From contig JAUWPW010000009.1 in assembly GCA_030611415.1 (NCBI GenBank), positions 1 through 37,208 on the forward strand: a DNA stretch of 37,208 bases, read 5' to 3'. The notes beneath the pieces are model-generated. The model had not been told where the DNA came from. It did not search any database and saw nothing but the letters and a program-made list of their open reading frames with translations. The translations under genes and the position numbers were made by a program. Positions 3,671 through 3,818 of this stretch are shown piece by piece; position 1 is the first letter of the stretch; each line of letters begins with the position of its first letter. The stretch is from Candidatus Bipolaricaulota bacterium (GTDB taxonomy: Bacteria > Bipolaricaulota > Bipolaricaulia > UBA7950 > UBA9294).

Positions 3671-3818
3671 GTTACCTCCTTTTGGTAACTGGGCTGCCTT
3701 CTCTAAGGTTTGGAGCTTCGATTTGGGATTTGAAAGCTTTCATGTTACCCCTTTAAGTAAGGCCCCTTGTTTTGCGCCCCGCCCTCTCGAACGGTTTGCC
3801 TTTGGCTCAGAGGTTTTT
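3671..3818 (-). promoter_or_regulatory. Candidate GEMM-I (cyclic dinucleotide) riboswitch plus translational expression platform
   Basis: Minus strand: CCAAAGGCAAACC-GUUC-GAGA-GGGC-GGGGCGCAAAAC-AAGGGGCCUU...AAGGCAGCCCAGUUACC-AAAAGGAGGUAACUAGAAUG; P2 with GNRA loop; P3 GGGGCCUU/AAGGC(AG)CCC; GUUACC can pair with GGUAAC over the SD. Confidence 0.75.

What the first reader, a model, noticed from the sequence alone, without database searches (positions are those of the whole stretch)
3671..3818. Candidate GEMM-I riboswitch, possibly the cGAMP-type (A20) variant, controlling a pilin-like surface operon
The minus-strand leader of the 173-aa secreted protein carries the GEMM-I core: GGCAAACC, a P2 hairpin capped by a GAGA (GNRA) loop, GG.CGCAAA, and a P3 closed by GGGGCCUU/AAGGCAGCCC with the AG bulge, ending in GUUACC immediately before the SD. 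Aligned by eye to Vc2 (GGGCAAACC), the base at position 20 is A (AGGCAAACC). A20 is the change associated with the Geobacter c-AMP-GMP-sensing GEMM-Ib group, although A20 RNAs can also be promiscuous. P3 has an unusually long apical extension.
Basis: partly seen in the sequence, partly recalled or inferred. Interest (0 to 1): 0.82.

Follow-up and report, generated by a model that had tools for sequence, protein, structure and literature searches.

The report
c-di-GMP riboswitch with P3 extension
The RNA upstream of a surface-protein operon in a candidate phylum (Bipolaricaulota) bacterium is a genuine c-di-GMP riboswitch with ordinary ligand-contact bases, not the cGAMP type, but it carries a conserved extra hairpin domain at a site where relatives carry an entire second riboswitch aptamer.

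Summary
In detail: window 3809-3680 (minus) is a GEMM-I aptamer, above the Rfam cut-offs for c-di-GMP-I-GGC (59.7 bits) and c-di-GMP-I (58.1). The cGAMP reading fails. The contact bases are G20/A47/C92, the c-di-GMP set. GGDEF enzymes sampled from relatives have the canonical Asp, not the Hypr Ser. G47, which the GGC model consensus shows, is also absent.

The genome is a Candidatus Bipolaricaulota MAG. The target is a four-gene surface operon whose third protein folds like WxL-interacting protein.

Two features are unusual. (1) P3 carries a 58-nt apical domain with compensatory changes and an almost invariant loop, found in six loci only (one genus plus one relative). (2) In relatives, the same P3 site holds a complete second c-di-GMP-I aptamer: 32 nested elements were extracted, and outer P1 and P3 pairing beats re-dealt controls (0/1000). 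I found no published report. Nesting does not occur in the window's own genus.

Most likely this is a translational ON switch: ligand captures GUUACC, which otherwise pairs with the Shine-Dalgarno region. The direction is inferred. No intact GGDEF was found in this 93%-complete MAG.

The parts
3680..3809 (-). c-di-GMP-I (GEMM-I) aptamer
   Evidence: RF03167 59.7 bits (cut-off 59), RF01051 58.1 bits (cut-off 35)
3800..3800 (-). G20 (ligand contact; A19 is at 3801)
   Evidence: Numbering anchored on C22/A23/A25 (PMC3764141); G in 120/127 distinct relatives
3773..3773 (-). A47 (stacks between the ligand bases)
   Evidence: A in 127/127 distinct aptamers; the RF03167 consensus shows G here
3685..3685 (-). 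C92 (ligand contact), in GUUACC
   Evidence: C in 117/127 distinct aptamers; PMC3764141, PMC4744006
3779..3794 (-). P2 hairpin, GAGA (GNRA) loop
3701..3758 (-). P3 apical extension (58 nt), helices P3b and P3c
   Evidence: Six loci at 135-168 bits, next match 61 bits; compensatory changes at two P3b pairs
3720..3731 (-). Conserved 12-nt loop AAAUCCCAAAUC of the extension
   Evidence: Identical in 4 of 6, at most two substitutions in the others
3670..3690 (-). Alternative hairpin AGUUACC-AAAAGGA-GGUAACU overlapping the Shine-Dalgarno
   Evidence: Pairing probability about 1 in the ligand-free fold
3675..3679 (-). Shine-Dalgarno core GGAGG, 8 nt before the ATG at 3666
   Evidence: Sequence
3808..3835 (-). 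Upstream hairpin CAGAGG/CCUCUG (3835-3830 with 3813-3808); its 3' strand could instead pair with GGAGGU at 3679-3674
   Evidence: Conserved in the genus, different hairpin at the same place in G086
3145..3666 (-). 173-aa secreted surface protein, ends VTWTL; a homologue is named WxL domain-containing
2559..3056 (-). 165-aa secreted protein
1705..2553 (-). 282-aa WxL-interacting-protein-like protein
   Evidence: Model mean pLDDT 91; best PDB match 9i25_C (E. faecium WxLIP) E 6.1e-15
2..1471 (-). Large secreted beta-rich protein, cut by the window end (852 aa in relatives)

Best explanation
A c-di-GMP-I riboswitch in the leader of a four-gene surface operon of a Candidatus Bipolaricaulota bacterium. 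Shown by sequence and comparison: the aptamer core, the G20/A47/C92 contact set, the conserved P3 apical extension, and the operon order kept in two other species of the genus. Inferred: without ligand, GUUACC (which contains C92 and C93) pairs with GGUAAC and ties up half of the Shine-Dalgarno plus the spacer; c-di-GMP binding draws GUUACC into the aptamer junction, opens that hairpin and raises translation (ON). The upstream CAGAGG/CCUCUG hairpin keeps the anti-Shine-Dalgarno strand CCUC out of the way. The P3 extension is probably an accessory structural domain lying beyond the tetraloop receptor; its role is not known.
For: Rfam hits above cut-off. Contact bases match the published conserved set. 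All 20 GGDEF domains read in relatives are canonical, and 97 of 100 phylum genomes carry the riboswitch and 97 carry GGDEF. The ligand-free fold forms the GUUACC/GGUAAC hairpin with probability about 1 in four of six sequences; forcing the aptamer raises mean Shine-Dalgarno accessibility in all six, markedly in five, but only 0.60 to 0.65 in the window's own sequence. In relatives, L010 and L012 have a terminator-like or strong hairpin made from the same 3' aptamer strand, and nested elements have CCUAAUGGU/ACCAUUAGG over AGGAGG, both of which point to ON. Operon conserved in G081 and G082.
Against: P1 is weak, and the competing pairing ACCUCU/GGAGGU, which would hide the Shine-Dalgarno in the bound state, is also possible and predicts OFF. 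Accessibility hardly changes in the window's own sequence. In G082 and G080:C133 the Shine-Dalgarno hairpin has an A-C mismatch. The only GGDEF-like protein found in this genome has lost the motif (SDNRF in place of GGDEF), so this species may make little or no c-di-GMP unless the gene lies in the missing 7%. No binding or expression data.
Confidence: 0.8

Rival explanations
1. Same c-di-GMP aptamer, but an OFF switch: ligand stabilises an extended P1 (ACCUCU with GGAGGU) that buries the Shine-Dalgarno.
For: The six-pair complement exists, and several relatives extend P1 into the ribosome-binding region, e.g. L020, L028, L032. In one fold of G080_C145 with the core forced, this pairing forms.
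Against: The stable upstream hairpin competes for the same strand and is conserved in the genus; with P2 and P3 forced, the fold keeps that hairpin and frees the Shine-Dalgarno in five of six.
Confidence: 0.3
2. cGAMP-sensing or promiscuous GEMM-Ib riboswitch.
For: Some relatives do have A20 (6 of 127 distinct aptamers), so the phylum is not uniform; PMC9262584 describes position 20 as a selectivity factor and not a hard filter.
Against: The window has G20 (numbering). An A20G change turns a Geobacter cGAMP aptamer into a c-di-GMP one (PMC6456294). No Hypr Ser among the GGDEF domains read.
Confidence: 0.05
3. Relic: the species has lost c-di-GMP synthesis and the aptamer is drifting.
For: No intact GGDEF found; only one aptamer remains against 2-3 in sister species; P1 is weak.
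Against: The core, contact bases and extension are intact, four HD-GYP-type genes remain, and the MAG is only 93% complete.
Confidence: 0.12
4. The P3 extension encodes a regulatory leader peptide (ATG AAA GCT ... TAA, 23 codons, 3743-3672) ending in the Shine-Dalgarno.
For: The frame is open in the window and has a plausible Shine-Dalgarno.
Against: The ATG is ATA, ATA, ACG, GCA or ATC-type sequence in the five homologous extensions.
Confidence: 0.02

Closest known systems
c-di-GMP-I riboswitch (GEMM-I, Rfam RF01051; Vc2 type)
   Same: P2 with GNRA loop, CGCAAA, AG bulge, G20/A47/C92, C44 and G83, G14 and C93.
   Different: 58-nt conserved apical domain on P3 with an almost invariant 12-nt loop; weak P1.
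c-di-GMP-I-GGC (Rfam RF03167)
   Same: Best-scoring model, just above its cut-off (59.7 against 59); overall sequence similar (AAAGGCAAACC).
   Different: A at position 47 where the model consensus has G; so it lacks what appears to be the naming base of that variant.
cGAMP riboswitch (GEMM-Ib, Geobacter)
   Same: Same scaffold.
   Different: G20 instead of A20; no Hypr GGDEF seen.
Tandem c-di-GMP-I riboswitches (PMC9481103)
   Same: Relatives of the window combine two aptamers of this class upstream of one gene.
   Different: In the relatives one aptamer lies inside P3 of the other, not one after the other; the window has a single aptamer.
WxL / WxLIP surface clusters of Firmicutes (PMC9772566, PMC10599100)
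   Same: Third gene product folds like WxLIP; first gene product ends in a WxL-type motif (VTWTL).
   Different: Phylum Bipolaricaulota; only one WxL motif seen in the first protein; no Pfam WxL hit.

Membership tests
c-di-GMP-I riboswitch (RF01051) | Covariance-model score above the family cut-off | tested here: met
   58.1 bits against 35
c-di-GMP-I riboswitch (RF01051) | Ligand contacts G20, A47, C92 | tested here: met
   3800 G, 3773 A, 3685 C
c-di-GMP-I riboswitch (RF01051) | P2 GNRA tetraloop and C44/G83 interhelical bases | tested here: met
   GAGA loop; C of CGC and G of the AG bulge present
c-di-GMP-I riboswitch (RF01051) | P1 helix closing the junction | tested here: inconclusive
   G14 and C93 present, outer model pairs mostly absent; an extended P1 with GGAGGU is possible
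c-di-GMP-I riboswitch (RF01051) | Binds c-di-GMP and changes expression | not testable with these tools
   Needs in-line probing, ITC or a reporter
c-di-GMP-I-GGC (RF03167) | Score above the family cut-off | tested here: met
   59.7 against 59, marginal
c-di-GMP-I-GGC (RF03167) | G at position 47 (read from the model consensus CGCGAA; that the name means G20/G47/C92 is my inference, the founding paper was not available) | tested here: not met
   A47 in the window and in 127/127 distinct relatives
cGAMP riboswitch (GEMM-Ib) | A at position 20 | tested here: not met
   G20 at 3800; the A is position 19
cGAMP riboswitch (GEMM-Ib) | Hypr GGDEF cyclase (Ser in place of the canonical Asp) in the organism | tested here: not met
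   None in the window's genome; 20 of 20 GGDEF domains read in relatives have Asp. The genome is 93% complete.
WxL/WxLIP surface cluster (operon) | WxLIP fold next to a small WxL protein with two WxL motifs | tested here: inconclusive
   WxLIP best fold match E 6.1e-15; PF06030 hits weakly in 3 of 35 homologues; only the C-terminal WxL motif is seen in the 173-aa protein; its fold search gave nothing significant

The most novel reading that the evidence does not exclude
In Bipolaricaulota the P3 apex of c-di-GMP-I aptamers is a docking site for a second RNA sensor: in many relatives a complete second c-di-GMP-I aptamer is nested there, and in the window's genus a different conserved domain with an almost invariant 12-nt loop occupies it and acts as a second input (another ligand, a protein or a tertiary partner). 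The nesting in relatives is well supported by covariation (about 0.9 on its own); the second-input role of the window's domain is the uncertain part, and the probability given is for that whole reading.
Probability: 0.2. Interest if true: 0.75.

Novelty: new variant of a known kind. Interest (0 to 1): 0.5.

Why it matters
It settles the ligand prediction for this RNA on sequence grounds (c-di-GMP, not cGAMP) and shows how a one-base shift in a by-eye alignment creates a false cGAMP call. It points to a candidate phylum where c-di-GMP-I riboswitches are nearly universal (97 of 100 genomes), while no PilZ receptor was found in the seven genomes tested, so RNA may be a main c-di-GMP output there. 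The follow-up exposed a nested arrangement of two aptamers that the tandem-riboswitch review held here does not describe; it makes a testable case for cooperative or two-signal control by a single RNA, since six of 32 nested elements pair an A20 outer aptamer with a second, inner aptamer.

Tried and rejected
Leader peptide inside P3: the ATG is not conserved in five homologous extensions. A20/cGAMP: off by one base. Membership in the GGC variant by its apparent diagnostic base: A47, not G47. P3 extension as a decayed nested aptamer: local alignment to aptamers is no better than shuffles for any of the six extensions. Minimum free energy alone as evidence: z-score -0.87 for the whole leader, so the fold energy says nothing. 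Promoter scan upstream: no sigma-70-like site. RNAalifold on the outer parts of the nested elements did not recover P1 because the strands were misaligned, and a re-dealing test on the five spanning pairs it did find was uninformative (1824/2000); a per-sequence helix test was then used and is reported with its control. The founding paper of the GGC variant was not in the library.

Full report
Observation. Rfam scores it above cut-off with two models of one clan: c-di-GMP-I-GGC RF03167 at 59.7 bits (cut-off 59; E 8e-12 over the window) and c-di-GMP-I RF01051 at 58.1 bits (cut-off 35). It is the only aptamer of either model in its genome, a 1.33-Mb assembly in 78 contigs estimated 93% complete. 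Sister records carrying the same extension are titled Candidatus Bipolaricaulota.

Ligand class. PMC3764141 lists G20 with C22, A23, A25, G32, A35, C44, G45, A47-A49, G83 and C92 as conserved, with a G14-C93 pair. Placing C22 and A23-A25 on GGCAAA puts G20 at 3800 and A at position 19 (3801). A47 is 3773 and C92 is 3685. Vc1 and Bc1 papers name the same three contacts. Across 127 distinct aptamers from the phylum, position 20 is G in 120, A in 6 and a gap in 1; position 47 is A in all; position 92 is C in 117; position 19 is mixed. Some of the non-C entries at 92 are artefacts of the model trying to close outer halves of nested elements. The RF03167 consensus has G at 47; I infer that GGC means G20/G47/C92, but the founding paper was not held. 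On that reading neither the window nor its relatives belong to the variant, although RF03167 scores them well.

Cyclases. In the window's genome the GGDEF search found one protein with the motif replaced by SDNRF (37.9 bits) and one class III cyclase (22.7 bits, below cut-off). One GGDEF domain from each of 20 relatives was read and all have GGDEF or GGEEF with the Asp of GHxxGD. I place the Hypr Ser348 of PMC6456294 at that Asp from my own knowledge of the family. Four HD-GYP-type domains are present in the window's genome, DAC is absent throughout its family, and PilZ was not found in seven genomes. Either the cyclase sits in the missing part of the assembly or this species has lost it.

P3 extension. 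The aptamer is 130 nt in the window and in four sister loci and 129 nt in G086:C40. A model built from the six (R1) scores them at 135-168 bits, and the next match in 100 phylum genomes is 61 bits, i.e. core only. The six are the training set, so their scores are high by construction; the gap to the next match is the informative part. A pattern for the loop plus CGCAAA found only the five other loci in 85,488 species genomes, so the extension is narrow at that strictness. In helix P3b two pairs change on both sides (A-U, G-C, U-A; C-G, U-A, A-U), and cells paired are 95.3% against 92.2% in shuffles (0/500) and 38-57% when slid. With six related sequences this is moderate evidence. The extension is not a decayed aptamer and not a leader peptide.

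Expression platform. Two exclusive pairings involve the ribosome-binding site: AGUUACC/GGUAACU, which uses the strand carrying C92, and ACCUCU/GGAGGU, an extended P1. An upstream hairpin CAGAGG/CCUCUG competes with the second. In free folds the first hairpin forms with probability about 1 in the window. With the aptamer forced, mean accessibility of the Shine-Dalgarno rises from 0.34-0.60 to 0.88-0.96 in five sequences, but only from 0.60 to 0.65 in the window's own. An earlier, looser constraint gave mixed results, including the extended P1 in G080_C145. I favour ON at about 0.6 to 0.65 given that the riboswitch reading is right; the statement's confidence of 0.8 is for a c-di-GMP-sensing riboswitch.

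Target. The 173-aa, 165-aa, 282-aa and large proteins are found in the same order in G081:C70 and G082:C3. The 282-aa model (mean pLDDT 91) matches E. faecium WxLIP best (9i25_C, E 6.1e-15, TM 0.52), with chaperone-usher chaperones following. The 173-aa protein ends in VTWTL and a homologue is named WxL domain-containing; its own model gives no significant fold match. A WxL-like surface complex is the best reading, with modest confidence.

Nested aptamers in relatives. While tabulating contact bases I found 5' half-aptamers ahead of complete ones, with the missing 3' half after them. A pattern for the outer 3' half (up to 3 mismatches) hits 43 times in 27 of 100 genomes and 18 of 39 genera, and the reversed pattern never. 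The pattern was written after seeing four examples, so the reversed control and the pairing test carry the weight. Of 41 distinct places readable, 32 gave both cores by an automatic rule; some of the nine others look nested by eye with divergent cores, some are cut by contig ends, and L185 and L186 look like un-nested versions. Own outer P1 pairing scores 16.06 against 14.29 +/- 0.40 for re-dealt 3' sides (0/1000; 16 distinct helices), and distal P3 scores 14.16 against 11.31 +/- 0.43 (0/1000; 21 distinct helices). Re-dealing ignores relatedness, so the 0/1000 is not a true probability. The L165 minimum-energy fold shows outer P1 and inner aptamer as drawn, L160 partly; L061 does not reproduce it fully. 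Six outer aptamers have A20. Downstream genes read in five nested loci encode small proteins with signal-like starts. A library search for 'nested riboswitch' found nothing and the tandem review does not use the word; the library lacks most subscription journals.

Choices made along the way. Fold energies, promoter scans and one RNAalifold analysis gave nothing and are listed under tried and rejected. Two folding set-ups were used for the platform and both are reported. Position statistics come from aptamers that scored well with R1, a model itself built on G20/A47/C92 sequences, so divergent variants may be under-sampled.

Noticed in passing
L061, L062, L069, L104, L105, L160, L165 and others (relatives, not the window): A complete c-di-GMP-I aptamer nested in P3 of a second c-di-GMP-I aptamer: 32 elements extracted, outer 3' half found 43 times in 27 of 100 Bipolaricaulota genomes; outer P1 and distal P3 pair better than re-dealt controls.
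   Followed up: partly
L062 (two), L082, L104, L105, L165: Six of 32 nested elements have an A20 outer aptamer; with a second, inner aptamer this could be a two-signal (cGAMP plus c-di-GMP) arrangement.
   Followed up: no
L111:1378-1523 (minus), genome G088: A single aptamer with A20 (AAAAGCAAACC), a real candidate for the cGAMP-type change in this phylum.
   Followed up: no
L059, genome G000 contig C26: Only GGDEF-like protein of the window's genome, with the motif degenerate (SDNRF); sister species have intact GGDEF proteins.
   Followed up: partly
L098, L101, L103 (sister species): Paralogous 173-aa-like genes without a GEMM aptamer have a conserved leader ending CTCTGATTACCAGAGGAGGTAA or close to it, possibly another RNA element.
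   Followed up: no
window 8073-9326, plus strand: A bacterial gene for archaeal-type Pus10 (Pus10_C E 2e-67 and archaeal THUMP domain).
   Followed up: no
genomes G000, G080-G082, G086, G096, G059: No PilZ domain found although c-di-GMP riboswitches and HD-GYP or GGDEF proteins are common in the phylum.
   Followed up: partly
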